Translations under genes and position numbers: made by a program
Assembly: GCA_018334055.1 (NCBI GenBank)
Contig: JAGXSS010000002.1
Span: forward strand, 1-34,561
DNA from: Peptococcaceae bacterium
GTDB lineage: Bacteria > Bacillota > UBA994
Length of the DNA stretch: 34,561 nucleotides
Direction of reading: 5' to 3'
Notes under the pieces: generated by a model
Seen by the model: the letters and a program-made list of their open reading frames with translations, nothing else
Databases searched by the model: none
Told to the model about the DNA's origin: nothing
Shown: piece by piece, positions 1 to 18,614 of the stretch
Layout: every line of letters begins with the position of its first letter
Numbering within the stretch: position 1 is the first letter of the stretch

Positions 1-2888
1 TAGGCGCCGTCGGCGTAGGTGATGCGGGTAAGGAGACCCCGGCGGTCGTAGGCGTACTGGGTGGTGATGTCGGTGGTCTCGGTAAGCTTTTGGTTGGCGT
101 TATTGTAGGTAAACACCACATCTGAGCGTGTGGGTGTAATTGTTGGGTAGATAAAGCGCTTGAGCCTGTTAAGCCCGTCGTATTCCCGGCTGGTGGTGTT
201 ACCCTTAGCGTCGGTAACAGTCAGGAGATTGCCGACGTTGTCGTAGGTGTAGGTGGTGGTATAGGTGGTTGACCCCTGCGGGTCTGGCTTTTGCTGTACT
301 TGAATTAGCCTACCCAGTATGTCAAAGGTGCGCGTGGTAGTGTTGCCGTTTGGGTCTCTCACGCTTATGGTGCGCGCGGCGTCGTTGTAGGTGGTTATTT
401 CCTCGAGGTTGCCTGGGAAAACGGTCCTTGTTACCCGGCCCCCGCCGTCGTACTGGTAAGTGGTGCCGAGGCCGACTCCGTTCTCTACGCTGCTCTTACG
501 CGAGATAGCGTCGTAGGCTATTTTGGCTGTGACCTGCCAAACGTTGTTAAGCCACACGCGCTCCTCAGAGAGGCGCCCAAGCCTATCGTACACGAACATG
601 GATTTAGCGCCGTTCTCTAGAGTAACAGTCACAGTACGGTTAACGTCATCGTAGGCGTACGCTCTAAAGGTGTTATCCGGGTTAGTGTGGCGAGTTAGCC
701 TGCCTAGATGATCGTACTGATAAGCGGTACGGTTATTAAGCGGGTCGACTGTAGCCGTCTTTTGGCCGGTATTAAGGTTGTATTCAATTGTTGCTACTTG
801 AGACCCTGTAGCATAGGGGACAGTAACCTTGGTAAGATATGCGCCTTGGTTGAGGGCGCTGTACTCATACTGGGTTATTCGTTCGGTACCGTCTTCCATT
901 ACCAAGCGGCTCTCCGTGAGGTTGCCGTACTGGTCGTAGATGTAGTAGGTGTTAATTTCCCGCGTAGCCTCTTGCTCCATATACACGCGGCGTTCCTCAG
1001 TGCGGTTACCGTTGGCAGCCACAGTATACTCGGCGCGCAGCACCACTCCGTCACTGCGGGTGGTTTGCACACTGGTGGGCTGATGGTACTTCGAGGCGTC
1101 GTAGGTGTAGGTTGTAACTGTTCCCAGAGCGTCTGTGGAGCTGGTGAAGTTATTGTGTTGGTCGAAGGTAGTGTGGGTGTTTGTCGTGGTAGCTTCGCCA
1201 GAGGGGTTAAAGGTAGTGGTTGTCACCTGGGTAGGCGTCTTTTTGCTATCGTAGGCGGTGACCACTACCTGTTTTATGCCGGAACCCTCAGTTTCGACTC
1301 GTGTTTGTAAGTGAAGATTGTTGTATGTGGTCTTAATAGTGGTTCCGTCGGCTTTAGTCATGGTTCCGCTATATGAGTAGGCGGATGGCAGGTTAAAGGG
1401 GCTGTGGTATGATGGATAACCCCCCGGTTCTCCCTGGTAGGTGTAGTTAACCAGATTAGCCACGGTTGCATCAATGTTGTCCTGTCTGGATGAGATTTTG
1501 TACAGTTCGCGCGCTCCATCATTGCCGAGGTTATCTCTGGCCTTAATGTAGGTGTACGAGGATGACCCGCCTGTAGGATAGATCACTGACTGGAGGCTAG
1601 CGAAGATATTGGCGACGGTGAGGGAGTGCTTGTTAGTAAAACTAAAATAGCCAGTGTCAAGCTGGTAGGCGTAAGAGGTGATACGCCCCAGTGGGTCTAC
1701 CGCTGAACTAAGTACTGGTTTGCCGGTAGTGGTCGCTGCCAGGTTATAACGCCACACTCTGCTATCGGGTGCGGTCAGCTCGACCGCGGATTGGCTGTAA
1801 CTAAGCCTTGTTTCTCTACCTAGGCTATCGACAATCTCTCCGATAAGGTGGTGTCCGTTCCAGAGTGTGTGCTTAAAGGTGATGGTATTGCCGTACCTGT
1901 CTTTAATGCCGAGCAACCTGCCGTCGCTGGCGAAGTAGGTGGTTCGGCCTTCTTTCGTGACTACGCGGTAGTGTGAGGTTAGCTGGCCATTGCTAAACGT
2001 CTGTGCATCCGTCTCAAAGCGGATATCTAGCAGCGGGTAGTCCTTAAACCTAGACGCGGCATTCCAGTCTACCGCGAGGGATTGCTGGCCGCTGTGGTAG
2101 ATGATGTGACCATCCCTGAGCTCTAGCGAGGGGAAATCCCATTGCCAACCGATGCCAAGGCCGTGGCGTCGGTCGAGGTGAGTCTCTAAACTCCGGCTTG
2201 TCTCTACCCAGTAGTCTGTGTAATACCTGTAGTGGCCCGGTATAAGTTCAATGGTAACGGTTGCGTAAACAGGAGCAACATAAACCCATATCTCCTGCCG
2301 CTCGTAGATTGGGTCTACCCAAGCAGTTTCGCAGACGCGTCTAAAATAACCTGGCACCCAATACTGGTAGAGTACGAGGTAATCCCACTCGTCAATGTAG
2401 AAGCCCCATGCAAAATGCCCTTCGACCCATTCGTCGCGACATACTGTGGCCCAATATCCTCCCCCTACTTGGCGCAGAACCCAAGTGGAGTACAAGTACC
2501 CTTCCTGCACTAGGACTTGTCTTTGCTCAGTCACTGGGGGAACCCACTCGCTCCACGTATGGGAAGCCACGTGAGACGTCTTCTGGTAGACATTAGACTG
2601 CTGGTTGTTATACATTCTCGTCATGCTGAGACCCAGGCCGTTGCGGCCGGGCAGGACGAGGTCGGTGTGGCTAAGGGTGAGGTTGCCGTTGCCGGGATGA
2701 ATGAGTTCTTTGTTATTGGCGAAAAAGGCGTTGTAGGGACCGACTTGCTCGGCGTTTGACTGCGTGGTCGGGCCTATGTAGTTGTTGTAGAGGCTGGATA
2801 TGTGCTGTGCCGACGCTGCCGCGAGCGAAGCGGCGACTGCCTGTAGACAAAGTGACGCGATAAGAATCGCGGCTAAGACGCGGCGCAT
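1..2888 (-). CDS. Secreted RHS/YD-repeat protein, C-terminus beyond window
   Basis: The frame is open from the ATG at 2888 to the left edge (962 codons), and I sampled codons along it without finding a frameshift. Residues 1 to about 27 form a signal peptide (MRRVLAAILIASLCLQAVAA). A start-of-RHS motif, HPGNGNLTLSHTDLVLPGRN, follows near residues 64-83, then an aromatic insert (about 112-225) and LGIGWQWDFPSLEL. From about residue 300 on there are many YD-type repeats (YDQYGNLTESR, YDHLGRLTRH, YDDVNRTV, YDNVGNLLTV, YDGLNRL). RHS repeats usually build a large beta-shell that encloses a variable C-terminal, often toxic, domain; that part is not visible here, so no toxin can be claimed. The start overlaps the stop of the upstream gene by one base (TAATG), so the two are probably translationally coupled. 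Confidence 0.93.
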   Translation of the reverse strand, partial: MRRVLAAILIASLCLQAVAASLAAASAQHISSLYNNYIGPTTQSNAEQVGPYNAFFANNKELIHPGNGNLTLSHTDLVLPGRNGLGLSMTRMYNNQQSNVYQKTSHVASHTWSEWVPPVTEQRQVLVQEGYLYSTWVLRQVGGGYWATVCRDEWVEGHFAWGFYIDEWDYLVLYQYWVPGYFRRVCETAWVDPIYERQEIWVYVAPVYATVTIELIPGHYRYYTDYWVETSRSLETHLDRRHGLGIGWQWDFPSLELRDGHIIYHSGQQSLAVDWNAASRFKDYPLLDIRFETDAQTFSNGQLTSHYRVVTKEGRTTYFASDGRLLGIKDRYGNTITFKHTLWNGHHLIGEIVDSLGRETRLSYSQSAVELTAPDSRVWRYNLAATTTGKPVLSSAVDPLGRITSYAYQLDTGYFSFTNKHSLTVANIFASLQSVIYPTGGSSSYTYIKARDNLGNDGARELYKISSRQDNIDATVANLVNYTYQGEPGGYPSYHSPFNLPSAYSYSGTMTKADGTTIKTTYNNLHLQTRVETEGSGIKQVVVTAYDSKKTPTQVTTTTFNPSGEATTTNTHTTFDQHNNFTSSTDALGTVTTYTYDASKYHQPTSVQTTRSDGVVLRAEYTVAANGNRTEERRVYMEQEATREINTYYIYDQYGNLTESRLVMEDGTERITQYEYSALNQGAYLTKVTVPYATGSQVATIEYNLNTGQKTATVDPLNNRTAYQYDHLGRLTRHTNPDNTFRAYAYDDVNRTVTVTLENGAKSMFVYDRLGRLSEERVWLNNVWQVTAKIAYDAISRKSSVENGVGLGTTYQYDGGGRVTRTVFPGNLEEITTYNDAARTISVRDPNGNTTTRTFDILGRLIQVQQKPDPQGSTTYTTTYTYDNVGNLLTVTDAKGNTTSREYDGLNRLKRFIYPTITPTRSDVVFTYNNANQKLTETTDITTQYAYDRRGLLTRITYADGA

Positions 2889-4459
2889 TACTTGCCATTC
2901 CCTGCGGGAAGCTTGACCGGGGGCCTAGGGTTGCTAGGCGGAGGGGTGCTCGGGATTTTGGGTATGCGCTTACCGGGGAATAGCTGCTCTAAGACGTTGC
3001 TCCAAGTGTTGTCTTTGGTTTTAAGGGCTAGAACTTCACTTGCGGTGAGTTTCGTAGCGGGGGCGAGGAGAGCTGCTTGGTAAGCGTCGTTTACCCAGAG
3101 CCCTTGTAACAGAGCTTGCGTAACCAGTTCCCGGTCATTAAGTCCCCAGCTAGCTGCCACCTCTAGGGCCTGAGTTAGCTCAGCCTCAGGCACTCCGGCG
3201 ATCTCCCGCCAGGTCTTGCCGAGGGATCTCAGGGCCGCTACTTCGACTCTAGGTTTGCCGGTGCGCGCGGCGTAGATTTCCACCAGTTCTTCTTCTGTGG
3301 GCTGTTTTACAGGAGTAGTGACTTTCCTAGCCGCGGCGGGGGTATTCCTATCCGTTTCTTTCACCAATTCCATTAGACTGATTCCTGACTTTCTGGCAGT
3401 CAGAATGGCGCGGAAATTTAGTCCCCGCGCGTTGGCGTAAGTATCCGCAAGTATAAGTTCTTTGAGATCTATGCCGCTGGCTACAAGCGCCACTACTTCA
3501 GCGGGCGTAAGTCCGGAAGGTGTGGTCTCTCTGTCTCCAAATCTCACTGCGACGACTCTGTTTTGGCTGGCCTTAATATCTGCAAGGCTCCGCCCGGTTT
3601 GCGCGGCTATCTCTTTGAGGTCGGATTCGCTTAGGGGCTTCACTTTGCTCTTGGCCTGTTCCCTTTGGGACGGGGTAAGGCTCGCGTATATTCTCAATAC
3701 AGTATCTGTAAGGGGTTCTCCCGCCTTCACCAAGGGCTTTAATTCTAGGCCAAGCGCAGCGGCGAGAGCATCTGCCTTAAGAATCTCCTCTAGCTTATAG
3801 CCGAGTTTTACGATCTCGGCGACTTCTTGTTTGGATAGACCCGTCCTAGTGTGAGTGGCTTTCCCATCCTGGCCAAAGCCGAAGCCGTACGGGTCATTGG
3901 AACCAGACATTTTCTCCTGCCAAGCAGTGGCATGATCTCGCCTAATGTCATCCCAAGCACGACCGCTCCGCTTCAGTTGCAGTAAGTGTCTGACGTCTCC
4001 GCCGTAGTTAAACAGGATGCTGCTGGCCTCTCTGATGTCCTCGCCTGCGTAGCCTTCACGCATTAGTTGAAGAATTTCCTGCGGTGTGAGAGTGCGCGAT
4101 TTCTCTGGGTCTAGTGGCTGGCGCTCCAATTTAACTCCCTTAGCTAACTGTTCGATGGCCTCGGACCAAGTCTTACCCGCCTTTCTGGCGGCCAGCCACT
4201 TGACGATGGGGATACCGGTTTGTTCTAGAAGGCCCAATGCGGTATAGACATCTGAGGGGGTATGGCCCTGTTTTTCATAACGCGCTAACTCCTCGCTACT
4301 CACTTGAGCCGATGCCTTGCTTTGATTGGGGGCTTGTCCACTTGAGCCGGGATTAGCCGCCACGGCATGGGTCACAAGCGTTACTATTAAGAGCATCAGT
4401 AGCAGCCAAAGCGCGCTTCGCTTCTGGAGTGGGATGGGTCGATCCTGCTTGGCTTTCAC
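2888..4459 (-). CDS. Secreted helical-repeat protein of unknown function, coupled to RHS gene
   Basis: GTG start with the Shine-Dalgarno site GGGAGG eight bases upstream; 523 aa. A basic N-terminus and hydrophobic core (residues 16-35) ending AVAA predict Sec export, with no lipobox. I do not recognise a family. The body contains imperfect repeats of about 50 residues starting near 54, 124, 207 and 316, with a partial one near 387 and a divergent one near 430. The shared pattern is an acidic helix start (ExLxxhhxxGy), DI or EI, an Ala-rich helix, a Gly, a Leu-rich helix, then K-x-G-x-x-W (KAGKTW 93-98, RSGRAW 164-169, SLGKTW 412-417, DNTW 483-486). The tail (498-523) is Pro-rich. The repeats suggest an alpha-helical scaffold or binding protein. 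The one-base overlap with the RHS gene suggests a joint role, possibly as partner, export helper or immunity factor; this is inference only. Confidence 0.85.
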   Translation of the reverse strand: MKAKQDRPIPLQKRSALWLLLMLLIVTLVTHAVAANPGSSGQAPNQSKASAQVSSEELARYEKQGHTPSDVYTALGLLEQTGIPIVKWLAARKAGKTWSEAIEQLAKGVKLERQPLDPEKSRTLTPQEILQLMREGYAGEDIREASSILFNYGGDVRHLLQLKRSGRAWDDIRRDHATAWQEKMSGSNDPYGFGFGQDGKATHTRTGLSKQEVAEIVKLGYKLEEILKADALAAALGLELKPLVKAGEPLTDTVLRIYASLTPSQREQAKSKVKPLSESDLKEIAAQTGRSLADIKASQNRVVAVRFGDRETTPSGLTPAEVVALVASGIDLKELILADTYANARGLNFRAILTARKSGISLMELVKETDRNTPAAARKVTTPVKQPTEEELVEIYAARTGKPRVEVAALRSLGKTWREIAGVPEAELTQALEVAASWGLNDRELVTQALLQGLWVNDAYQAALLAPATKLTASEVLALKTKDNTWSNVLEQLFPGKRIPKIPSTPPPSNPRPPVKLPAGNGK

Positions 4460-5088
4460 ATGCGATTCCTCCCTTTCTACCTATGCCTGTCGTTACGTGT
4501 CTAAGCAGACTGTTATAGCAAGCATAAATGATGGAAATGGTAAAAACAAGCACAATCTTTCGATAAATTTCGACACTTGCTGTCGAATGTTGTCGGGATT
4601 TGTCTGTGACCTGAAGTTTGTGGAAGTGCCGCGCTGGCTAACCTTCACGTACCGTGTCCATGGCTGTTTCTTGCATAATTAAATAGGGCAAAGCTGCAAA
4701 AAGAACTTCCCCACTTTTGCAACTCCGAATTCCCCAGAAATGCAAAGAGCCATTGTGGGCACCAACCAAATAACTTGCCCCTATAATGGTTGTCCCAAAA
4801 CTGCAGGGGAGGAATCGGAGGATATTTCATCACGGGGACAGGTCGCTCGTGGCGTTCCTCAAACTACGTGAGTGGCCACACCCTGTGGTTGTCCCTCGGC
4901 AACTCGTTACAGTGCGATGGTAATGGTGATACCGCACGCGCTCCTTCTGGCAGGAGATAGGGCTATAACAGAGAATATTACCTTTAATTCCACTGCAAAA
5001 AGTCACTTTTCAAACTAGAGCCCATGATTTCTCGCTGGCTGGTGACCTTGCTCGATGTCCAAAAATTTCGGTTTGAAGGAGAGCATCT
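4460..5088. other. Non-coding gap of 629 bp between divergent genes
   Basis: It lies between the divergent starts of the helical-repeat gene (minus) and the glucokinase gene (plus), so it must hold both promoters, but I see no convincing -35/-10 pair for either. It holds a ribosome site GAAGGAGAG just before 5089, a site GGGAGG before 4459, and a small hairpin at 4695-4721. The short reading frames here lack ribosome sites or family resemblance. Confidence 0.6.
4695..4721. repeat. Small inverted repeat, possible dispersed palindromic element
   Basis: Arms TGCAAAAAG (4695-4703) and CTTTTGCA (4714-4721) flank the loop AACTTCCCCA. A second TTCCCCA follows at 4730-4736, beside GAATT. This looks like part of a short interspersed repeat rather than a terminator, because neither neighbour ends here. 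No second copy was noticed in this window, so the repeat status is unproven. Confidence 0.3.
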
Positions 5089-6798: not shown

Positions 6799-6872
6799 CT
6801 TCACATCCCCTGTCCAGGAACCTTTTGTTCCTTTTTATACAGTTTACAGGTCGGGGCCTACTATGGCAATGC

Positions 6873-9209
6873 TCACTCCCAAGTGATAGTGAAATCTGCA
6901 AAATTCGCCGTCTTTACAGTCAGAGTGCCATCATTATATGTCCACTCCAAACCCTCCTGCGTGACAGCAGTCACAGCGAGGGGCCTGGGCATTCCGATGA
7001 AGTTAAAGGTTATGTCCTGGTAAGGGTTACTGCTTTGGCCACTCTCTAAAACTCTGAAATATGCCTGTGTCGGCTCAAAATCAAGCGCAAATTGCCACAG
7101 GTTGTACTGCCCGCAAGTGTAGGCCAGACTTGTACCGTCATCATGGTACAACATCCCTGCGCAGGGCGTGGTATGATCTGCAAATACATCTATGGTGATC
7201 GCATCTTCGGGTTTTTCCCCGTGGTAATTGACCACCGGGGCCTGTGGTATCATCGCTCCGGCCTTCACAAACAAAGGCATTACTGCAAGCGAAGCATCAG
7301 CAACAATATAGCCATTGCCACTGTACTTTTCTCTCGTCCACCAGTCAACCCAGCTGCCTTCCGGCAGATAAACCATTCTCTTGTCCTTTCCTATTGCAGT
7401 TACAGGTGCAATAAGCAAGGAATTACCAAGCAGACACTGGTCGTCCAGACGCCAGGTGTTTTTGTCTTGCGGGTAGTGCAGCACCAAGGGTCGCCATATC
7501 GGCAAGCCAGTGCTACTAGCTTCAAAAAAAAGTGTGTAAAGAAACGGCATAAGTTGGTAGCGCAAGCGAATATATGTGCGGCATATCTCTTCGATAACTG
7601 GTCCGAAAGCCCACGGTTCTTGATGGATTGTGTCAATGGCCGAGTGGTTGCGGCAGAAAGGGGCCAATGCGCCGAGCTGAGTCCAACGTGCTAAGAGCTC
7701 CGGCTCACAGTCATCAACAAACCCCCCGATGTCTGTGCCAATAAAAGGCACGCCGGAAAGGCCCATACCGATAGACATCGGTATAACTGCCGCCAAATGT
7801 TCCCACCAACTACTGTTGTCGCCAAACCAGACTGCGCTATAGCGCTGTATGCCCGCGAATCCAGCCCGAGTCAAGACAAAGGGACGCTCTTCTGGCTTTA
7901 ATCTGAGCAGACCAGCCCGAGTAGCCTTAGCCATCTCCAAGCCATAGACATTATGCACTCTGGCGTGGGCAAAGCATCCGTCTTCTCCATGGCGAACTTG
8001 TTCTGGCATTGTTTTCCCAGCCACATTAAAAACCGCTGGTTCATTCATATCATTCCAAATGCCGTCGATGCCCCTTTCAATGTAAAAGCGATGCCATTCT
8101 CCCCACCAGTGACGAGTCTTCTCTTTAATAAAATCAGGAAAAGCAGTTGCACCAGGCCAGACATCACCAACATAGACGCTACCATCAGCATGTCGCACAA
8201 AATGCTCTCCCTCTATACCTTCCCGATACACACTGTACTTATCATCTACCTTAACTCCGGGGTCTACAAGGCACACCGTCTTATAGCCCATGCTTTTCAA
8301 CTGATCAGTTAACCCCTCCGGGTCTGCAAACTCATGGGAATCAAACGTAAAGACACGATAGCCATCCATATAATGAATATCTAGATACAATGCATCACAG
8401 GGAATCTCTTTCTCGCGCATAGTACGGGCAATCTCAATGACCTGGCTGTCTGGGTGATAGCTGTAGCGACATTGCTGGTAACCAAGGCTCCATTTTGGCG
8501 GCATGGGCATCTTGCCGGTTAGTTCGGTATATCGCCCGAGAACATCTTGAATGCGCGGACCTGCCAGTAAGTAGTAACGCAGGCGACCGCCATCCGCGCC
8601 GAAAATAATGGTCCCTGGGTCATGTTTACCCATATCAAAATGAGACCGATAGGTATTGTCTAAGAATACTCCCCAAGCCACATTATTATTAAAACCTATA
8701 AAGAAAGGTATTGACACGTACAAGGGATCGGTGTTCGGCAGGTGAGGAACGACATCGGTATTCCACATAGTCATGGCTTTACCACACTTATCCATGTGGC
8801 CCATTTTTTCGCCGAGACCGTAGTAATGATCTCCTTCGCGCATGGTCATCTTGGCAACCACAGCCTGACCGCTCTGTCCCACAGTCTCACCTTCTACAGT
8901 ACTGCAAAATAGATTCCCTTCGCCGTCAAAAAAATTCAGGGCGAATGGTGACTCTTGCACTTCGACCCTCCAGTAACCGTCGCTCAAAGACACTCCCTGC
9001 GGGCTGATACTTGATACCCCCAGCGAAAAATTAGGCTCTGCTATTACTGCCCATGAAAGGTCATCGTGGTGTCTTGGATTGTAGTCCACCCTGAGGGTGC
9101 CCGGCGCGACAAAAACCACTTCTACCGTATGCTCGGCGCCTTTTAGCAATAGGCCACCCTCGACTGGAGATGCCAAAGTTGCCGCATGAAAATAATTATA
9201 TTGTTTCAT
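6873..9209 (-). CDS. GH31 alpha-glucosidase
   Basis: Releases glucose (or xylose in related enzymes) from the non-reducing end of alpha-linked oligosaccharides. 778 aa from the chosen ATG, which has GGAGG five bases upstream; the GTG at 9224 has no such site. An N-terminal beta domain (about 1-225) with HYYGLGEKMG is followed by the barrel, with PKWSLGYQQCRYSY near 239-252, DALYLDIHYMDGYRVFTFD near 272-290, and the nucleophile in GIWNDMNEPAVF (Asp387). The likely acid/base Asp464 is in WFGDNSSWWEHL. A C-terminal beta domain completes it. There is no signal peptide, so it should be cytosolic and act on imported maltodextrins. It starts 20 bp after the MsmX-type gene. Alpha-xylosidase is the main alternative; the maltodextrin context favours alpha-glucosidase. 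Confidence 0.92.
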   Translation of the reverse strand: MKQYNYFHAATLASPVEGGLLLKGAEHTVEVVFVAPGTLRVDYNPRHHDDLSWAVIAEPNFSLGVSSISPQGVSLSDGYWRVEVQESPFALNFFDGEGNLFCSTVEGETVGQSGQAVVAKMTMREGDHYYGLGEKMGHMDKCGKAMTMWNTDVVPHLPNTDPLYVSIPFFIGFNNNVAWGVFLDNTYRSHFDMGKHDPGTIIFGADGGRLRYYLLAGPRIQDVLGRYTELTGKMPMPPKWSLGYQQCRYSYHPDSQVIEIARTMREKEIPCDALYLDIHYMDGYRVFTFDSHEFADPEGLTDQLKSMGYKTVCLVDPGVKVDDKYSVYREGIEGEHFVRHADGSVYVGDVWPGATAFPDFIKEKTRHWWGEWHRFYIERGIDGIWNDMNEPAVFNVAGKTMPEQVRHGEDGCFAHARVHNVYGLEMAKATRAGLLRLKPEERPFVLTRAGFAGIQRYSAVWFGDNSSWWEHLAAVIPMSIGMGLSGVPFIGTDIGGFVDDCEPELLARWTQLGALAPFCRNHSAIDTIHQEPWAFGPVIEEICRTYIRLRYQLMPFLYTLFFEASSTGLPIWRPLVLHYPQDKNTWRLDDQCLLGNSLLIAPVTAIGKDKRMVYLPEGSWVDWWTREKYSGNGYIVADASLAVMPLFVKAGAMIPQAPVVNYHGEKPEDAITIDVFADHTTPCAGMLYHDDGTSLAYTCGQYNLWQFALDFEPTQAYFRVLESGQSSNPYQDITFNFIGMPRPLAVTAVTQEGLEWTYNDGTLTVKTANFADFTITWE

Positions 9210-9229
9210 ATTGTCCTCCGTCACAACTC

Positions 9230-10348
9230 TTAGTAGATTGCCGCTTCAGTGTTAAGGTCAAAAAAGTAGATCCGCTCCATATCTAATGCCACTCTAATGT
9301 TGTTCCCCGGTCTAGCCTTTGTCCGTGGGCTGACTCTCGCGACCAAATTGAAGGGACTATGTCCCACACTGCGCAAATATAGATGAGTTTCAGGCCCCAT
9401 TAATTCTGTGTTTTCCACCACGGTTTCAACTACGCTATGAGGTGAATTTGCCATAAATTGCTCATCATCGTGCACGTTTTCAGGACGAATGCCCGCTAAA
9501 ACGGCCTTGTTGGCATAGCCTCTCGCCCGCAAAACTTTGGCGTAGCCCTCTGGAATGTTCACCTTGTTATTGTCTAAATTTAACCACATGCCATTCGTGC
9601 CTTCCACGATGTCGCCACGCAAAAAATTAATCGCCGGACTGCCTATGAACCCCGCCACAAATGCATTAACTGGTTTTTCATAGATTGTCTGCGGGTCCGC
9701 CACCTGGTGAACAACACCCCCATGCATTACCGCAATGCGGGTGCCCATAGTCATGGCTTCCACTTGGTCATGAGTAACATAGACCACTGTCGTGCCCAGA
9801 CGACGATGTAACTTACTGATTTCGCTTCGCATCTGCACTCTAAGCTTGGCATCCAAGTTTGACAAGGGTTCATCCATGAGAAAAACTTTGGGCTCCCTCA
9901 CCATTGCTCTCCCCAGCGCCACGCGCTGGCGCTGCCCGCCGGAGAGCTGTTTCGGTTTACGCTTAAGCAAGTCAGTAATCTCAAGCATTTGTGCTGCCTC
10001 ATTCACGCACCGTTTTATCTCTTCTCTAGGCATTTTACGCAGCTCTAAAACAAAAGAAATATTTTCAAATACTGTCATATGCGGGTAAAGGGCATAGTTT
10101 TGAAAGACCATGGCAATATCTCTGTTTTTGGCTGGCAGGTCATTGACCCTTTTGTCATCGATAAAGACTTCGCCCGAGCTGACCTCTTCAAGCCCAGCAA
10201 TCATACGCAAGGTTGTGGTCTTACCACAACCGGAAGGTCCGACCAACACCATGAACTCCTTTTCATCAACTCTTAAGCTAACATTTTTTACGGCATGCAC
10301 ACCGTTTGGAAATACTTTGTTAACATTAATTAGGTTTACGCCAGCCAT
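9230..10348 (-). CDS. msmX: Sugar ABC transporter ATPase, MsmX/UgpC type
   Basis: Energises a CUT1 carbohydrate importer. 372 aa. Walker A GPSGCGKT is at 37-44, the Q-loop Gln at 83, the signature LSGGQ at 135-139, Walker B VFLMDEP at 155-161 and the switch His at 193. The C-terminal part (about 240-372) is the TOBE-type regulatory domain of the MalK/MsmX/UgpC group, with GIRPENVH. GAGGG lies seven bases before the ATG. It follows malG by 22 bp and so should serve the MalFG pair, though ATPases of this group often serve several sugar importers. Confidence 0.93.
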   Translation of the reverse strand: MAGVNLINVNKVFPNGVHAVKNVSLRVDEKEFMVLVGPSGCGKTTTLRMIAGLEEVSSGEVFIDDKRVNDLPAKNRDIAMVFQNYALYPHMTVFENISFVLELRKMPREEIKRCVNEAAQMLEITDLLKRKPKQLSGGQRQRVALGRAMVREPKVFLMDEPLSNLDAKLRVQMRSEISKLHRRLGTTVVYVTHDQVEAMTMGTRIAVMHGGVVHQVADPQTIYEKPVNAFVAGFIGSPAINFLRGDIVEGTNGMWLNLDNNKVNIPEGYAKVLRARGYANKAVLAGIRPENVHDDEQFMANSPHSVVETVVENTELMGPETHLYLRSVGHSPFNLVARVSPRTKARPGNNIRVALDMERIYFFDLNTEAAIY

Positions 10349-10370
10349 ACTTGATCCCTCTTTCTTCTAG

Positions 10371-11213
10371 CTACTTAGTTGCGCCTTGGGTAAGCCCTGC
10401 TATGAGTAATTTCTGCAGCAGGAGATAGGCGACAGCAATCGGCAGCGCTACCAGGACTGCCCCAGCGGCAAAGCGAGTGAAATTATTGGCAAACTGAGCA
10501 GTCACATAAGAATACAACCCGAGTGCCAGGGTAAATTTTTCGGGGCTGCGGAGAATGATTCGCGGCAAAATATAGTCGAACATTGGTCCGAAAAAATTAA
10601 ACAACGCTACAACTGAAATAATAGGCAGGGCCAAAGGCAACATAATACGAACGAATATAGTGAAATGGCTTGCCCCGTCAATCTTCGCCGCTTCTTCAAT
10701 GCTCTTAGGAATAGTGTCAAAATAACCCTTCATGAGCCAAGTGTTGAAGGGAATTTGTCCGGCAGCATAGACCAGGATTAAACCTAGGTGAGTGTTTAAG
10801 AGGCCCATTTTACTAAGCAGGACAAATATAGCGATGATGCCCATCGCGCCGGGAAACATTTGCACTATAAGAAAGGCCATCATACTCGTTTTACGCCCCC
10901 AAAAGCGATAACGCGAGAACGAGTAAGCCGTCATGGTAGTAAGGACTATGGACAGCAATGAATTGACTACGGCAATGAACAATGTGTTTTTATACCAATT
11001 GAGGTACTGCGTCTGCGTAAAAAGATAGATGTAGTGGTTCAAGGTGACCTCGCGCGGAATCAGCGTGCTGCCCGAAAGGCTATATGCTGGGTTAAAAGAG
11101 CCGGCAACCACCCAAGTGAGCGGGTACGCGACCACTAGCACCATCAGCCATAACACGACATAGGTGGCCACAAGCCCCCAGTCAATTCTTCTTCTTTGCG
11201 TAGATTGTTTCAT
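10371..11213 (-). CDS. malG: Maltodextrin ABC transporter permease, MalG type
   Basis: Inner permease of the CUT1 importer; 280 aa with six predicted membrane helices. The EAA loop, EEAAKIDGASHFTIFVRIMLP, lies near 168-188 and docks the ATPase. The order MalF, MalG, ATPase and the four-base ATGA overlap with malF (11210-11213) show one operon and translational coupling. Substrate is inferred from the neighbouring amylases and alpha-glucosidase. Confidence 0.92.
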   Translation of the reverse strand: MKQSTQRRRIDWGLVATYVVLWLMVLVVAYPLTWVVAGSFNPAYSLSGSTLIPREVTLNHYIYLFTQTQYLNWYKNTLFIAVVNSLLSIVLTTMTAYSFSRYRFWGRKTSMMAFLIVQMFPGAMGIIAIFVLLSKMGLLNTHLGLILVYAAGQIPFNTWLMKGYFDTIPKSIEEAAKIDGASHFTIFVRIMLPLALPIISVVALFNFFGPMFDYILPRIILRSPEKFTLALGLYSYVTAQFANNFTRFAAGAVLVALPIAVAYLLLQKLLIAGLTQGATK

Positions 11214-12550
11214 GATATCATATCCTCTTCTTGGAATTGTCTGGTCCTTCGAAAGTTCCAGATTGAAATGATGGCGACTATAACAAAGATAACCAGACTG
11301 ATTGCCGCGGCGTAGTTGTAACGAAACAGCTCATCAAATGCTACCTTAAACACCCATGTAATCAAAATATCGGTGCCCCCCGCAGCGCGCAAGCCCGGCA
11401 CAGCAGGTCCGCCGCCGGTCAAAAGGTAGACTGCATTAAAATTGTTAAAATTATGGGCGAAGGACATGATTAGAAGCGGACCCACGGCGTACAGGACAAG
11501 TGGTAGGGTTATTCGCCAAAACTGTTGGAAGTCCGAAGCTCCATCCACCTCTGCCGCTTCGTAGACTTCTACGGGGATGCTCTGTAAGACACCGGTGCAG
11601 AGTATCATAAACCAGGGAAAGCCAAGCCATAAATTGACGATGAGTATCAGCGCCCGTGACCAAAAAATGCTATTAAACCACGGAATCTGGGCGATGCCCA
11701 CAGCAGCGAGCATCTGATTGACATGCCCCCACTGATCATTAAAAAGCCCTCGCAGCACCAAAATAGAAATAAATCCGGGTATAGCCCACGGAAGAATGAG
11801 AAAGGTGCGAAAGAAACGGCGAAATTTAAGTCTTGGATGGTTTAGCAATACCGCAAGAAATAGACCCAAGAAGAAAGTCGAAAGCGTAGAAAAAATGGTC
11901 CAGGCAACAGTCCACCCAAACACATGAACAAAACTATTTCTCCATGCCTCTATACGCCAAATGCTAAGAAAGTTTTCGAATCCTACCCACGACACCAGCC
12001 TTGCCGGGGGTGCATTGTGCAGTGAGTAGTTCGTGAAGGCAATCGATATTGAAAAAAGTAGCGGCATGACCACAAAAAACAGCATCATCCCTGTGCCTGG
12101 CGCGAGCAAGAGGTAGGCAAATCCCTTCTCATATAAATCCGTCATGTTTTGCTTAAACCCAACAATTCGCAAGCCCTGGTCCCGACGCTTACCCGTATGC
12201 CACGCATCTAGGACGTTGCCTATGTAGACCAGGAGGAACACTGCCAAGACAGTAAGCACAATCAATGCATCAATCAGTAGAAATAAGGAATGGTCACCGC
12301 GAACACCGGGTCTTTCGCCCAACGTCGTAATGGACCATAGGGCGTGCCCGATGATCGAACGCCCACGCAACCCAAGTTGCGAGTTGAGAGGTTCAATTAA
12401 CCTGCTACCAAATTCGACCGCTAGGAAAGAAAGATGCACCCCTGTCAAAATCGCTCCCTTAATCCATTGACCATTATATATCTGGCCAAGGCCCATAAAC
12501 AGCGCAGAGAGGAATGAGGCCCTACTTCTGTGATTCAAACTGCTTTGCAT
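11210..12550 (-). CDS. malF: Maltodextrin ABC transporter permease, MalF type
   Basis: Permease partner of MalG; 446 aa from the chosen ATG at 12550, which has AGAAAGG upstream. The GTG at 12589 lies inside the terminator stem and is unlikely. The N-terminus carries an extra small membrane unit, LGQIYNGQWIKGAIL near 22-36, followed by a helix around 90-110 before the usual MalF core. This extra unit is seen in Firmicutes maltodextrin permeases. The core includes the EAA loop EVYEAAEVDGASDFQQFWRI, about 110 residues before the C-terminus. A strong hairpin precedes the gene, so expression is probably lower than that of malE. Confidence 0.92.
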   Translation of the reverse strand: MQSSLNHRSRASFLSALFMGLGQIYNGQWIKGAILTGVHLSFLAVEFGSRLIEPLNSQLGLRGRSIIGHALWSITTLGERPGVRGDHSLFLLIDALIVLTVLAVFLLVYIGNVLDAWHTGKRRDQGLRIVGFKQNMTDLYEKGFAYLLLAPGTGMMLFFVVMPLLFSISIAFTNYSLHNAPPARLVSWVGFENFLSIWRIEAWRNSFVHVFGWTVAWTIFSTLSTFFLGLFLAVLLNHPRLKFRRFFRTFLILPWAIPGFISILVLRGLFNDQWGHVNQMLAAVGIAQIPWFNSIFWSRALILIVNLWLGFPWFMILCTGVLQSIPVEVYEAAEVDGASDFQQFWRITLPLVLYAVGPLLIMSFAHNFNNFNAVYLLTGGGPAVPGLRAAGGTDILITWVFKVAFDELFRYNYAAAISLVIFVIVAIISIWNFRRTRQFQEEDMIS

Positions 12551-12578
12551 GCCATCAAGCCTTTCTAAAATTCTTAAA

Positions 12579-12617
12579 AAGCCCCCCACTTATCAAGAAA
12601 AAAGAAGTGAGGGGCTT
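12579..12617 (-). terminator. Intercistronic terminator between malE and malF
   Basis: On the minus strand AAGCCCCTCACTT (12617-12605) pairs with AAGTGGGGGGCTT (12591-12579) over 13 positions with one mismatch or wobble, followed by a run of T (GGGGGGCTTTTTAAG). The stop codon of malE lies just before the stem, at 12625. Partial termination or 3' protection here would give more binding protein than permease, as is common in CUT1 operons. Confidence 0.82.
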
Positions 12618-12624
12618 TAAACGA

Positions 12625-13848
12625 CTACTTCATCTCAGCTATAGCGTCCTTGATATGTTTTACAGCGTCGTCGAGCGCCTGTTGGGCAGAAACGCCATCC
12701 CTAGCCACAACCTCAATGGCCGCGCCTATTGCGCCCCATACAGGGCCTAACTCGGGAACATTTGGCATGGGAACGGCAAACTCCGCTTGCGCTAAAAACC
12801 CGGCGGCAATTGGGTCGGTAATTTGAATATCCGCCCGGGGTGGTATTTCGCCAGTATCAGCAAAACGACTTTCGAGGCTGGTCTTGCTAGTCATAAACTC
12901 AATTAATTTAGTAGCCCAGTAAGGGTGTTTTGTAAAGGCACTTACATACCAACCTTTAACACCACTAAACGAGGCTTGATTCCGGCCGTTAGGGAGTTTT
13001 GGCAGCACGGCAACTCCCACATCAATACCCCGGGCACGGTAATTGGCAATAGACCACGGGCCGTTGACAATCATGGCCGTCCTACCTTGCACAAACTGGT
13101 CATCCATCTGGCCGTAGTCAGTGGCGATAGGTATCAGTTTTTTGTCGACCAGCTCCTTAATAAGCCCCATAGCGGCAACTGCTCCGGCATTATTCATTCC
13201 TATGTCTGCAGTGTCAAACTTACCGTCCGCGAATTTAAAAACATAACCACCCATTCCGGCGAAGATACCGTGCACAAAATAGAAGTTCCTATAATCAAAC
13301 AGAAACCCAAACCTATTATCGGCACGATTTGTATGTTGCTCAGCCAAGGACAGGAGTTCACCCCAAGTAGTCGGCGGGTTGGCCACTAAGGCCTTGTTGT
13401 ATACTAATGCGCTAGTCTCGATAGCCTTCGGCAGACCATAAAGTTGGCCGTCAAAAGTCAGGGCATCAAGGGCTGGCTTTAAAAATTCATCTTTGACGCC
13501 TCGCGCCAACCATTCCGAGATGGGCTGAATCACACCCGCCAAGACGGCAGGACCGATTTGGTCGTGAGGCCAGGTAACGACATCGGCCGCAATTCCGGCA
13601 GGTCCATCAAGAGTTAACTGATTACGTTGTTCGAGGTTGGCCACTTCGACAACTTCGACTGGGATTCCATACTTAGCTGTGAATAGGGCAGCCAACTTGC
13701 GAGCGCTTTCCGCTTGTTCTGCCACCTCCCAGACGACTAGTTTTTCTGGCTTATCGGGCACACGAACTGCGGGGCGACAGCCAATCAGGGTGCTAAAAAC
13801 AATTGCCGTCAAAAGAGCGAGCGCTGCATACTTGGTAAAATTCTTCAC
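12625..13848 (-). CDS. malE: Maltodextrin-binding lipoprotein, MalE type
   Basis: Extracellular solute-binding protein of the CUT1 importer; 407 aa. Signal peptide with lipobox STLIGC, so lipidated at Cys24 and anchored in the membrane. The start of the mature protein, KLVVWEVAEQAESARKLAAL, and GPWSIANYRARGIDVGVAVLP with KGWYVSAFTKHPYWATKLIEF are typical of extracellular solute-binding family 1. GTG start with a GGGGGA site about seven bases upstream. It lies 106 bp after the alpha-amylase gene and before the terminator that separates it from malF. Binding of maltose or longer maltodextrin is inferred from neighbours. Confidence 0.92.
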   Translation of the reverse strand: MKNFTKYAALALLTAIVFSTLIGCRPAVRVPDKPEKLVVWEVAEQAESARKLAALFTAKYGIPVEVVEVANLEQRNQLTLDGPAGIAADVVTWPHDQIGPAVLAGVIQPISEWLARGVKDEFLKPALDALTFDGQLYGLPKAIETSALVYNKALVANPPTTWGELLSLAEQHTNRADNRFGFLFDYRNFYFVHGIFAGMGGYVFKFADGKFDTADIGMNNAGAVAAMGLIKELVDKKLIPIATDYGQMDDQFVQGRTAMIVNGPWSIANYRARGIDVGVAVLPKLPNGRNQASFSGVKGWYVSAFTKHPYWATKLIEFMTSKTSLESRFADTGEIPPRADIQITDPIAAGFLAQAEFAVPMPNVPELGPVWGAIGAAIEVVARDGVSAQQALDDAVKHIKDAIAEMK

Positions 13849-13928
13849 TTCATTTTCCCCCTTCTTTTTTAACTCTCGGTCAACAACTGCAACTATGCTT
13901 GATTTCGTCGCCTCCCCTCATGCTTACA

Positions 13929-13942
13929 AGCGTACGTTTTCA
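13929..13942 (-). promoter_or_regulatory. Weak LacI/CcpA-like operator match before malE
   Basis: On the minus strand TGAAAACGTACGCT fits the left half TGNAANCG of the LacI/CcpA site but ends CT rather than CA. It lies in the 106-bp gap between the amylase and malE genes. It is much weaker than the two sites at 16684-16731 and may be chance. Confidence 0.25.
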
Positions 13943-13954
13943 TCACTTAAGCCC

Positions 13955-15640
13955 TTATGGGGCATGTATCGCTGACCTTTGCAGTACTACAGTGGTCAGT
14001 GGGGCAATGCTAATTCTTACACCGTTGACTCTGTTCTTGTTTGTTCCTGTACTCTCGAATATGATTTTTGCGCCCGACAAATCTTCCCCCTGCACTATGA
14101 TTTCCTGTGGTTCCAGACTCAAATTGTGTAAAACGATAACACTGCTCCGGGCACTCCCCCCACTTCGCAGGTTTCTACCATAAACAATTACTTTGTCATT
14201 GCTAGATTCAAGCGCCACGAAATCCCCTTTTGCCAAAGCCTCATTGGTCTGCCGCAATCTGATAAGCCGCTTATAATGGTGCAAAATTGAATTACGATCT
14301 TGCTGTTGCTCCTCCCAAGGCACCGTATCCTTGTTGTGGGCTATGTTTTGCCAACTGGTCTCCGGCAATTTTGCCTCTCTAAACCACACGAACGGTTCGC
14401 GTATTTCCTCGTCAGGCTTAGTGCCCTTCATGCCGATTTCTTCCCCATAATAGATAAATGGATTGCCAGGCATGGTCAGATAGATGCCAGCCGCCAATTT
14501 TGCCCTATCGATGTCTCCGCGCAGCCTATTCATAACCCGCTCTTGGTCGTGATTAGATAAAAACGGGGCATCTAAGAAGTGCGGCTCAACAGCCGCAAAC
14601 TCTTTGTACATTCCTTCAAGCCATACCGCAAAATCCTTCCCGTTTGCATATACAGTACTCCCTGAATTTACGGCGCGAATAATGCCCTCTGCCAAATCAA
14701 AGTTAAACAAAGAGTCCAGGCCGGAGTAAAAAGGCGCCACAACACGAGCACTGGCCCACACCTCCCCCACTAGATATACATCTGGGTTGACCGCCTCTAG
14801 TGCTGCCCCAAACTCCCTCCACCACTGCAGGTTTTTTTCCCTCAGATTCGTGCCCAGAGGTTCTTCAAAGATGCCGTATGCATGCAGGACAGCATCCAGC
14901 CTAAAGCCATGAACACCCTTGTTTAGCCAGAATGTTGCGATTGCCTTAATCTCTTCTCGCACTTTCACATTGTCAAAATTCAAGTCAGGCATTTGATCCC
15001 AGAAAATGCCATAGTAATAGCTACTACCCTTTCTGTGCCATAGCCTGCTTCCCCATGAGGACCTTCCTCGAAGATTAAACCCCTCCTGCCCTTCTTTGGC
15101 CCAAACATAATAGTCTCGGTACGGATTATTTTCTGACCTGGCGGACTCCTTGAACCATGGATGCCGCGAGCTGGTATGATTTATCACTAAGTCTAGCAAG
15201 ACTTTTATTCCCCTCTGCTCTGCCTCCTGCAGAAAAACTCTAAAATCCTCCATAGTTCCATATTCTGGGTCAATATTGTAATAGTCGACTACGTCATACT
15301 TATGGTAACTTGGCGAGACGTTGATCGGCATAAGCCATAGACCAGTTACGCCCAGGTCAGTGTCTGTCAGCGGGTCTCCATCATTTAAATAATCCAGTTT
15401 AGAGGTTAGTCCATTAATATCTCCTATTCCATCGCCATCTGAGTCGGCAAAAGACCTCACGAAAACCTGATAATAGACCCCATATTTGCTCTCGATTCTG
15501 CGCGGCTGTCTACTTACTTCTGCCGCTCTTTCCCCAGCGCTCTTGTCTGCAGTGCATCCAACTAGTAGCCACCCCACTAACAGAAGACAGGTAGACCGTA
15601 TAATCCACACAAAAAATCTTTTGCCGTACAGCTGTTCCAC
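13955..15640 (-). CDS. Surface lipoprotein alpha-amylase, GH13
   Basis: Hydrolyses alpha-1,4 glucan outside the cell. 561 aa with an N-terminal membrane segment and lipobox (LLVGC, Cys29), then the GH13 barrel. Markers in order: VYYQVFVRSFADSDGDGIGD (55-74), DLVINHTSSRHPWF (150-163), GFRLDA with nucleophile Asp249, VGEVW with acid/base Glu293, and LSNHDQERVM with the third acid Asp365. The calcium-type motif DSDGDGIGD is intact. Start is uncertain: the GTG at 15640 directly abuts GGGAGG, so initiation may be slightly downstream. It lies 28 bp after the LacI-type gene and upstream of malE, so it fits the role of making maltodextrins for import. Confidence 0.9.
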   Translation of the reverse strand: MEQLYGKRFFVWIIRSTCLLLVGWLLVGCTADKSAGERAAEVSRQPRRIESKYGVYYQVFVRSFADSDGDGIGDINGLTSKLDYLNDGDPLTDTDLGVTGLWLMPINVSPSYHKYDVVDYYNIDPEYGTMEDFRVFLQEAEQRGIKVLLDLVINHTSSRHPWFKESARSENNPYRDYYVWAKEGQEGFNLRGRSSWGSRLWHRKGSSYYYGIFWDQMPDLNFDNVKVREEIKAIATFWLNKGVHGFRLDAVLHAYGIFEEPLGTNLREKNLQWWREFGAALEAVNPDVYLVGEVWASARVVAPFYSGLDSLFNFDLAEGIIRAVNSGSTVYANGKDFAVWLEGMYKEFAAVEPHFLDAPFLSNHDQERVMNRLRGDIDRAKLAAGIYLTMPGNPFIYYGEEIGMKGTKPDEEIREPFVWFREAKLPETSWQNIAHNKDTVPWEEQQQDRNSILHHYKRLIRLRQTNEALAKGDFVALESSNDKVIVYGRNLRSGGSARSSVIVLHNLSLEPQEIIVQGEDLSGAKIIFESTGTNKNRVNGVRISIAPLTTVVLQRSAIHAP

Positions 15641-15668
15641 CTCCCGCTAGCTTTTTTCTTTACCGATT

Positions 15669-16667
15669 TCATGTAGTCTGACGAACAATCAACTCTGCAG
15701 GTATGACCAGCTGTTCTGAGGGGGACTGGTTCTCGAGCATATCGATTAGCATCCGAGCAGATTCGAATCCTAATGCATAGGTCGATATCCGCAACGTGGT
15801 CAAGGCCGGTTGCATAAATGCTGACATTGGGTCGTCGTTGAAGCCGATCACAGCCACATCAGCAGGAATCGCAAAACCATGCTCCTTTAGCCAATGGATC
15901 ACGCCCAGCGCAATGACATCATCCGCCGCAACAATTGCGTCAGGCATTTCGGCTAGGCTTGCTAGACGAGCCATCGCCTCACGCCCTCCTGCTGTCGTAA
16001 AGCTGGTCTCCACAACTAATTCTGGCAGATTTCTAGAAGACGCCCTTAGGGCACGGCGGTAACCCTCAATACGGTCAAGAGAGACTACCAGATCCCGCGG
16101 CCCGGAGATAAACGCAATGCGCTGTCGCCCACGCTCAACGAGATGCCGCGTGCCTTGGATCGCACAATCAATGTTATCGTTATTTACCATGGCCACATGG
16201 TGCTTTAGGCTGCGCCCAATCAACACAAAAGGCACCTGTTCTGCTAATAAAGCTTCTACCAAAAAATCATCGGCACGCACAGAGGATAGAATTAGACCGT
16301 CTACTTGTTTGCCCTTCACCATCTGGAGGGCATCCTTCACCTCCCAATCTGAATTACTGCTCATCGACAGCATCAGCTTGTAGTCACGCTGCTGGCAGGC
16401 CGACGCAATGCCACGCAGTAGTTCTGCAAAGAAGGGGTTGGCAAAAGCCTCCTCGGCGGAGCGCGCAATAGTCAAGGCTATCGTCTTGGTGCGGTGTTTT
16501 GCCAGACTGCGGGCGTTAGCATTGGGCACATAGTTAAGTCTCACCATTGCCCCACGCACCTTTGCGGCGGTCTCTAAACTGATCGCTTGATTATTGGCGA
16601 TTACTCGTGAGACGGTAGACGGAGAAACATTCGCCAGTGTGGCGACATCCCTGATAGTAGCAGACAT
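15669..16667 (-). CDS. LacI-family transcriptional regulator of the maltodextrin locus
   Basis: 332 aa from the ATG at 16667, chosen because GGAGGA lies about five bases upstream. Starting at 16688 would place the first codons inside an operator. The helix-turn-helix is TIRDVATLANVSPSTVSRVI (3-22), followed by the hinge NYVPNANARSLAKHRTKTIAL. The effector domain has the periplasmic-binding fold (GLILSSVRADDFLVEALL, AFISGPRDL, AVIGFNDDPMSAFMQPALTTLR). It sits between the amylase gene and a divergent GH13 gene, with two sites matching LacI-family operators in the shared promoter region, so it is probably an autoregulated repressor that responds to a maltose-type sugar. Confidence 0.92.
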   Translation of the reverse strand: MSATIRDVATLANVSPSTVSRVIANNQAISLETAAKVRGAMVRLNYVPNANARSLAKHRTKTIALTIARSAEEAFANPFFAELLRGIASACQQRDYKLMLSMSSNSDWEVKDALQMVKGKQVDGLILSSVRADDFLVEALLAEQVPFVLIGRSLKHHVAMVNNDNIDCAIQGTRHLVERGRQRIAFISGPRDLVVSLDRIEGYRRALRASSRNLPELVVETSFTTAGGREAMARLASLAEMPDAIVAADDVIALGVIHWLKEHGFAIPADVAVIGFNDDPMSAFMQPALTTLRISTYALGFESARMLIDMLENQSPSEQLVIPAELIVRQTT

Positions 16668-16681
16668 GGCTTCCTCCATTC

Positions 16682-16699
16682 TATGCAACCGCTTGCATA
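16682..16699. promoter_or_regulatory. Operator O1 for the LacI-family regulator
   Basis: TATGCAACCGCTTGCATA has seven-base inverted arms around a central CCGC. The core at 16684-16697, read on the minus strand, is TGCAAGCGGTTGCA, a full match to TGNAANCGNTNNCA. It overlaps the proposed -10 of the regulator gene and ends 14 bp before its start codon, which suggests autorepression. Confidence 0.8.
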
Positions 16700-16725
16700 A
16701 ACGGCTAAAAAAATTTGTGCAACCG
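16694..16725 (-). promoter_or_regulatory. Proposed promoter of the LacI-type gene and downstream operon
   Basis: On the minus strand TTGCAC is followed after 17 bases by TATGCA. The -35 is close to consensus and the -10 matches four of six. Both elements overlap the operators O1 and O2. Confidence 0.5.
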
Positions 16726-16731
16726 GTTTCA
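16718..16731. promoter_or_regulatory. Operator O2 for the LacI-family regulator
   Basis: TGCAACCGGTTTCA fully matches TGNAANCGNTNNCA. Its centre is 34 bp from that of O1, roughly three helical turns. It lies just upstream of an extended -10 for the divergent GH13 gene and over the -35 of the regulator gene, so it could control both. Confidence 0.78.
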
Positions 16732-16739
16732 TGGATTCA

Positions 16740-16748
16740 TGGTATACT
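16740..16748 (+). promoter_or_regulatory. Extended -10 promoter of the divergent GH13 gene
   Basis: TGGTATACT fits the extended -10 pattern TGnTATAAT with one mismatch. No good -35 is seen; O2 lies in its place. Transcription from here gives a leader of about 120 bases before the proposed TTG start at 16875. Confidence 0.5.
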
Positions 16749-16874
16749 ATTCGCAATAGTGGCTCAGAATCCTTCTCGCTGCAAATATTTTTTTTGTTCC
16801 TGAAGAAGCCTAGACCGAGCCGCAAGAAGCATTGGCATCACGGAATAGTTGATCGAGAAGGGGGGTCCTCCTGC

Positions 16875-18596: not shown

Positions 18597-18614
18597 TCAG
18601 TGCGCCGACGAAGA

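What the first reader, a model, noticed from the sequence alone, without database searches (positions are those of the whole stretch)
2888..4459. Unrecognised secreted helical-repeat protein coupled to an RHS gene
About four clear and two degenerate repeats of some 50 residues share an acidic helix start, GY, DI/EI, an Ala/Leu-rich helix and K-x-G-x-x-W. The stop and the RHS start share a base (TAATG at 2886-2890). I know no named family with this pattern. It may be a dedicated partner, export aid or immunity-like factor of the RHS protein.
Basis: partly seen in the sequence, partly recalled or inferred. Interest (0 to 1): 0.62.

Follow-up and report, generated by a model that had tools for sequence, protein, structure and literature searches.

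The report
Helical partner of secreted RHS toxins
The gene is real and belongs to an unnamed family of exported proteins built from a small four-helix repeat; across Gram-positive-type bacteria this repeat sits either in the gene just before a large RHS shell protein or fused to that protein's front end, never both, so it is probably a working part of the RHS toxin particle.

Summary
In detail: ORF 2888-4459(-) encodes a 523-aa exported all-helical protein with six ~55-residue units, and its stop shares one base with the RHS start (TAATG). No Pfam, NCBIfam, PADLOC or PDB family covers it. The repeat is not unique to the window. A profile made without the window scores it 89 bits (best of 2000 shuffles: 7). 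In 31 RHS loci carrying the module, it is either a separate exported gene directly 5' of RHS (17) or fused to the RHS N-terminus (14), never both; TAATG recurs in two other loci. In one Paenibacillus-like family all 20 newly inspected loci are RHS-linked. But 19 other genomes of the phylum carry exported members of the same repeat family with no RHS nearby, so the family is broader than RHS. RHS C-termini vary (TNT, Ntox44, lipase-like): polymorphic toxins; the upstream, exported module is a poor immunity candidate. Best reading: a modular extracytoplasmic partner of the N-terminal end of a Sec-exported RHS shell (cap, assembly aid or anchor). Association is shown; binding and mechanism are inferred. 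One unit folds confidently (pLDDT 91) with a UBA-like look.

The parts
2888..4459 (-). Exported helical-repeat protein, 523 aa, GTG start
   Evidence: ORF; no Pfam/NCBIfam/PADLOC/PDB family; 97.4 bits to a profile built only from RHS-unlinked relatives
4355..4459 (-). Signal-peptide-like N-terminus (residues 1-35, ...THAVAAN)
   Evidence: Hydrophobic stretch KD 2.73 from residue 16, no lipobox
4139..4303 (-). Repeat unit 1 (residues 53-107)
   Evidence: Profile hit; AF2 helices 55-105
3929..4096 (-). Repeat unit 2 (residues 122-177)
   Evidence: Profile hit, 26.9 bits; single-unit AF2 model pLDDT 91
3674..3844 (-). Repeat unit 3 (residues 206-262), partly degenerate
3347..3517 (-). Repeat unit 4 (residues 315-371)
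3149..3301 (-). Repeat unit 5, degenerate (residues 387-437)
   Evidence: AF2 helices 389-437; weak self-match
2978..3133 (-). Repeat unit 6 (residues 443-494)
   Evidence: Profile hit; AF2 helices 443-493
2891..2971 (-). Proline-rich C-terminal tail (residues 497-523)
   Evidence: sequence; pLDDT mostly below 50
2886..2890 (-). TAATG stop/start overlap; an AGGG at 2900-2903 could be the RHS ribosome site
   Evidence: the same TAATG in L154 and L156, ATGA in L163
3..2888 (-). RHS shell protein, N-terminal 962 aa with signal peptide, DUF6531 and RHS/YD repeats; 3' end cut by the contig end
   Evidence: Pfam RHS_repeat E 2.8e-33, DUF6531 E 5.5e-6; window is contig C2 from base 1
4496..4632 (-). 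5' flank (putative promoter region) shared at 93% identity with the broken copy in G003

Best explanation
The gene encodes a Sec-exported partner of the RHS protein made downstream of it by coupled translation. It is built from six units of an unnamed ~55-residue four-helix repeat (UBA-like three-helix core plus a K-x-G-x-x-W helix). [quoted passage not shown] In many other lineages the same module is simply the N-terminal domain of the RHS protein. Shown: the repeat, the export signals, coupling, recurrent adjacency, separate-or-fused exclusivity, variable toxin tips in relatives. Inferred: physical binding, site of binding, and which of cap, assembly aid or anchor it is.
For: (1) RHS-first survey: an RHS N-terminal profile (window + G008) in 299 genomes of the phylum led to 20 loci; separate exported helical genes stand 9-63 nt before RHS in several, and others have the module fused. 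(2) Module-first surveys: 398 and 150 genomes. (3) In 31 RHS loci, 17 have the module as separate gene(s) directly 5' and 14 as an N-terminal RHS domain, none both; all 37 module ORFs among 204 ORFs are RHS itself or the ORF(s) just 5' of it. (4) TAATG overlap in window, L154 and L156; ATGA in L163; zero gap in L159. (5) Non-circular test: a profile from RHS-unlinked proteins only finds the window protein at 97.4 bits and, among 480 ORFs of these loci, hits only family members. (6) All 22 separate helical proteins, and the RHS proteins checked, have signal-peptide-like segments near the N-terminus. (7) RHS C-termini in relatives are toxins of different kinds: TNT, Ntox44, lipase/Tle3-like, DUF6973. 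(8) Known Rhs shells are closed at the N-terminal end by a plug (PMC8765631), and an alpha-helical N-terminal domain of Tse15 is proposed to be an internal chaperone (PMC11461821).
Against: No interaction was measured or modelled; the pair is too long for the folding tool. The same repeat occurs in exported proteins of 19 genomes with no RHS nearby, so it has a use without RHS, and the unlinked profile scores the window protein as well as the linked one (97 vs 89 bits). In the fused proteins read, some tens of residues separate module and shell, so tight docking is not implied. The whole-protein AF2 model has pTM 0.27.
Confidence: 0.55

Rival explanations
1. Surface anchor or stalk: the helical protein binds peptidoglycan, S-layer or another surface protein and tethers RHS to the cell, with no role in shell closure or folding.
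For: Exported; the gene 5' of it in many relatives is a large surface-type protein (VWA-fn3, RCC1, Big_5); WapA of Streptococcus suis has an N-terminal wall-binding region (PMC12704120).
Against: No LysM, SLH, LPxTG or lipobox in it; the window has no such surface gene next door.
Confidence: 0.25
2. Independent exported protein with its own job, co-transcribed with RHS by chance or for regulation only.
For: RHS-unlinked relatives exist in 19 genomes.
Against: 14 N-terminal fusions, exclusivity in 31 loci, stop/start overlap in separate loci.
Confidence: 0.1
3. Immunity protein against the RHS toxin tip.
For: Next to a polymorphic toxin gene; helical.
Against: 5' of the toxin gene rather than 3'; exported; the module is part of the toxin polypeptide itself in 14 loci; the same module accompanies unrelated tips. 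Small ORFs downstream of RHS are better candidates (e.g. DUF7878 after the RHS tip on L023).
Confidence: 0.03
4. The repeat is a chance or low-complexity pattern of an Ala/Leu-rich protein.
For: Units share only ~20-30% identity.
Against: 89.3 bits from a window-free profile against at most 7.3 in 2000 shuffles; confident one-unit fold.
Confidence: 0.01

Closest known systems
WapA-type Sec-exported RHS polymorphic toxins of Gram-positive bacteria (PMC12704120)
   Same: Signal peptide, DUF6531/YD-repeat shell, variable toxin end, dedicated genes just upstream
   Different: There the upstream genes are a SecF-like protein and a sortase, and the N-terminal region is LysM/DNRLRE; here it is an unnamed helical repeat, separate or fused
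Alpha-helical clade domain of the T6SS effector Tse15 (PMC11461821)
   Same: Helical module N-terminal to an Rhs cocoon; proposed internal chaperone and tether
   Different: T6SS, Gram-negative, one autocleaved 12-helix bundle; our profiles do not match any Rhs chain in the PDB by sequence
Rhs N-terminal plug / EagR chaperone systems (PMC8765631)
   Different: Plug is part of the shell; EagR is cytoplasmic and shields transmembrane helices; neither is this repeat
UBA domains (CBL, CBL-B)
   Same: A 35-residue stretch 'EIxxLxxxGYxxxDIxxA' matches CBL UBA (E 2.3e-6); UBA folds recur among weak Foldseek hits
   Different: Extra fourth helix with K-x-G-x-x-W, tandem, exported; Foldseek E-values are not significant; ubiquitin binding not expected
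'GWGEI' exported helical-repeat proteins of the same phylum (no Pfam name)
   Same: Same repeat: hhalign probability 98.5, E 3.7e-15
   Different: No RHS in the neighbourhood

Membership tests
RHS-linked members of the helical-repeat family described here | Repeat detected by profile built without the window | tested here: met
   89.3 and 97.4 bits
RHS-linked members of the helical-repeat family described here | Separate gene directly 5' of RHS on the same strand, or fused to it | tested here: met
   1-base overlap at 2886-2890
RHS-linked members of the helical-repeat family described here | Export signal | tested here: met
   Hydrophobic N-terminus with AVAA; no dedicated signal-peptide predictor was available
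RHS polymorphic toxin (partner gene) | RHS/YD repeats with DUF6531 start | tested here: met
RHS polymorphic toxin (partner gene) | Variable C-terminal toxin and 3' immunity gene | tested here: inconclusive
   3' end lies off the contig; relatives carry TNT, Ntox44, lipase-like ends
UBA domain | Pfam UBA-type model above cut-off | tested here: not met
   UBA_HOIP 13.8 bits against cut-off 22.4
UBA domain | Three-helix fold with GY/GF loop | tested here: inconclusive
   CBL UBA E 2.3e-6 by profile, Foldseek E 3.6-4.3
Immunity protein | Encoded 3' of the toxin and cytoplasmic | tested here: not met
   5' position, exported, fused to RHS elsewhere
ALF alpha-helical repeats of polymorphic toxins | Pfam ALF match | tested here: not met
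   no match at E up to 1
Chaperone or cap of the RHS shell | Physical binding to the RHS N-terminal end | not testable with these tools
   pair exceeds folding limit; no wet data

The most novel reading that the evidence does not exclude
Probability: 0.3. Interest if true: 0.78.

Novelty: new variant of a known kind. Interest (0 to 1): 0.6.

Why it matters
How very large RHS proteins are exported unfolded, closed around their toxin and held outside Gram-positive-type cells is open: the S. suis WapA paper says that how these proteins of over 300 kDa pass the cell wall is not identified (PMC12704120). A recurrent, translationally coupled, separate-or-fused partner gives a concrete, testable component, and a repeat family missing from Pfam and NCBIfam that can now be annotated.

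Tried and rejected
Direct search with the window protein in named genomes, plasmids and PDB found nothing; the way in was the RHS N-terminus. Whole-protein Foldseek returned only designed alpha/alpha toroids with any weight: rejected as repetition artefacts (each stretch ~7 bits). Pfam near-misses (HTH, Death, DUF433, OST-HTH) are inconsistent between relatives and were not used. Immunity role rejected on position, export and fusion. A family confined to RHS was rejected because RHS-free relatives exist. For loci with a secretin-like gene before RHS (L063, L068-L071, L077) the helical N-terminal region may be the same module (hhalign 86-95%), but single-sequence scores are weak for most, so they are left out of the 31-locus count. 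The second named-genome scan gave only two names: Bacillota MAG SKS3.bin89 (L139) and a Thermincola ferriacetica MAG (L140).

Full report
What is there. The window is the whole contig C2 of a 2.4-Mb draft genome. ORF 2888-4459(-) has 523 codons, a signal-peptide-like start, six helical units and a proline-rich tail. Its TAA shares one base with the ATG of an RHS gene (3-2888, -) that runs off the contig. Repeat self-similarity exceeds shuffles. The helical protein has no family in Pfam, NCBIfam or PADLOC and no PDB match by sequence.

Presence in the nearest relatives is patchy. In G001, same genus, the flank is 98% identical and polA stands directly beside the ROK gene with neither helical nor RHS gene. 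G002 has no match. G003 has a broken, internally deleted copy at another place, without RHS; over 141 shared codons dN/dS is 0.34 (the G003 copy is decaying, so this is only a hint of past constraint). In G004 two contig ends break at the same residue of the gene. In the window's own genome contig C63 carries a second RHS gene whose last ~200 bases before the contig end are identical to window 2190-2390, so the 5' half of this operon may be duplicated. This is the usual picture of a mobile or exchangeable toxin locus.

Relatives. A profile of the RHS N-terminus from window and G008 (which has two helical genes, 299 and 252 aa, before a 3237-aa RHS) was run on 299 genomes of the phylum. Reading 20 loci showed separate exported helical genes 9-63 nt before RHS (L062, L067, L077, L079) and RHS proteins with the module at their N-terminus (L064, L065, L072). 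A repeat profile made of eight such units, without the window, scores the window protein 89.3 bits against at most 7.3 for 2000 shuffles.

Is it always beside RHS? A survey of 398 genomes with a repeat profile found 29 with hits. Nine are RHS-linked (G000, G008, G026, G035, G109, G116, G136, G142, G211), one is the RHS-less relict G003, and 19 carry exported proteins with 'GWGEI'-type units; an RHS-repeat profile finds no RHS in the loci fetched around these (several flanks are cut by contig ends). The profile was seeded mostly with RHS-linked units, so ranking by score is biased. The unbiased test is the reverse: a profile from RHS-unlinked units only. It finds the window protein (97.4 bits, E 3.4e-29) and, among 480 ORFs of the loci, only family members, including the ORF just before RHS in L062, L067, L079, L111, L112 and L030. 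Linked and unlinked units are one family by hhalign (98.5%, E 3.7e-15).

In the family of G116 (unnamed; Paenibacillus-like by my reading of genome size and proteins) 20 of 150 genomes have the module. All 20 newly fetched loci are RHS-linked. Taking all such loci together, 17 have one or two separate helical genes directly 5' of an RHS protein lacking the module, 14 have an RHS protein with the module, and none has both. Fused loci were read with at least ~0.9 kb upstream, enough to show a gene of this size. L153 looks like a fused RHS gene split by a frame break. TAATG is repeated in L154 and L156, ATGA in L163. Stand-alone and fused forms of one module are classic evidence of a functional, usually physical, link.

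What the RHS proteins are. C-termini of linked RHS proteins are TNT (L112), Ntox44 (L166), lipase/Tle3-like (L167) and DUF6973 (L168), others unknown: polymorphic toxins. The window's own tip is off the contig. Immunity for such toxins is expected 3' of the gene (general knowledge of polymorphic toxins); the helical gene is 5', exported, and part of the toxin protein itself in 14 loci.

Fold. The whole model is beads of four short helices (pLDDT 75-90 in the good units, pTM 0.27). One unit with 28 aligned units gives pLDDT 91, pTM 0.75, helices 8-16, 21-34, 38-46, 51-63. The first three helices match CBL UBA by profile (E 2.3e-6), and UBA domains recur among Foldseek hits that are individually not significant. 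I call it UBA-like, not UBA.

How it most likely works. Rhs shells are closed cocoons with an N-terminal plug, and the toxin inside (PMC8765631). A Sec-exported RHS must fold outside the membrane. A partner made in the same place by coupled translation, exported on its own signal peptide, and elsewhere built into the RHS N-terminus, is best read as a factor of the N-terminal end: cap, assembly aid or anchor. Tse15's helical N-terminal domain, proposed to be an internal chaperone, is the nearest functional analogue (PMC11461821), not a homologue on the tests made here. The comparative survey of polymorphic toxins (PMC3482391) names ALF as helical repeats but, in the passages read, not this module; papers outside the held library were not searched.

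Limits. No binding data; the organism names behind most loci are hidden; signal peptides were judged by hydrophobicity only; loci of one family are related, so 31 loci are not 31 independent events.

Noticed in passing
L062:3127-4371, L064:5781-7628, L072:6735-6998, L154:7290-11351, L156:7234-9165, L158:7515-9290, L163:7664-9418, L165:848-1117, L167:6736-7059 and others (15 loci): The gene 5' of the helical gene (or of the fused RHS) is an exported protein, sometimes only 84-107 aa, that ends in a pair of YD repeats ('YxYDxxGRL...YxYDxNGNL'): it may dock onto the RHS shell by strand pairing.
   Followed up: partly
L155:8267-11632, L160:3449-6760, L030:12438-15746, L154:7290-11330: Genes before the helical genes are large VWA-fn3 or RCC1-propeller/Big_5 surface-type proteins; the VWA-fn3 kind was seen with two tandem helical genes.
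   Followed up: partly
L063, L068, L069, L070, L071, L077: A secretin-like gene stands just 5' of an RHS gene (or of its helical gene) with helical N-terminal region, suggesting export of RHS across an outer membrane in some lineages (secretin read by eye).
   Followed up: partly
L022 (G000:C63) 340-4509: Second RHS gene of the window's genome, 86% identical DNA, cut at a contig end where it is identical to window 2190-2390; its C-terminus looks GIY-YIG-like by eye, without a Pfam hit.
   Followed up: partly
window 6859-18599: G001, same genus and ~95-98% identical around it, lacks this 11.7-kb stretch with the GH31 and ABC sugar-uptake genes.
   Followed up: no
L114, L117, L119, L120, L122, L124-L128, L131-L135: Widespread exported helical-repeat proteins of the 'GWGEIAK.LG' type with no Pfam or NCBIfam name and no RHS nearby; function unknown.
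   Followed up: partly
G004:C6 end and G004:C44 start (L024, L025): Both contig ends stop at the same residue (~43) of a helical-gene relative; the remainder is not found elsewhere in that assembly.
   Followed up: no
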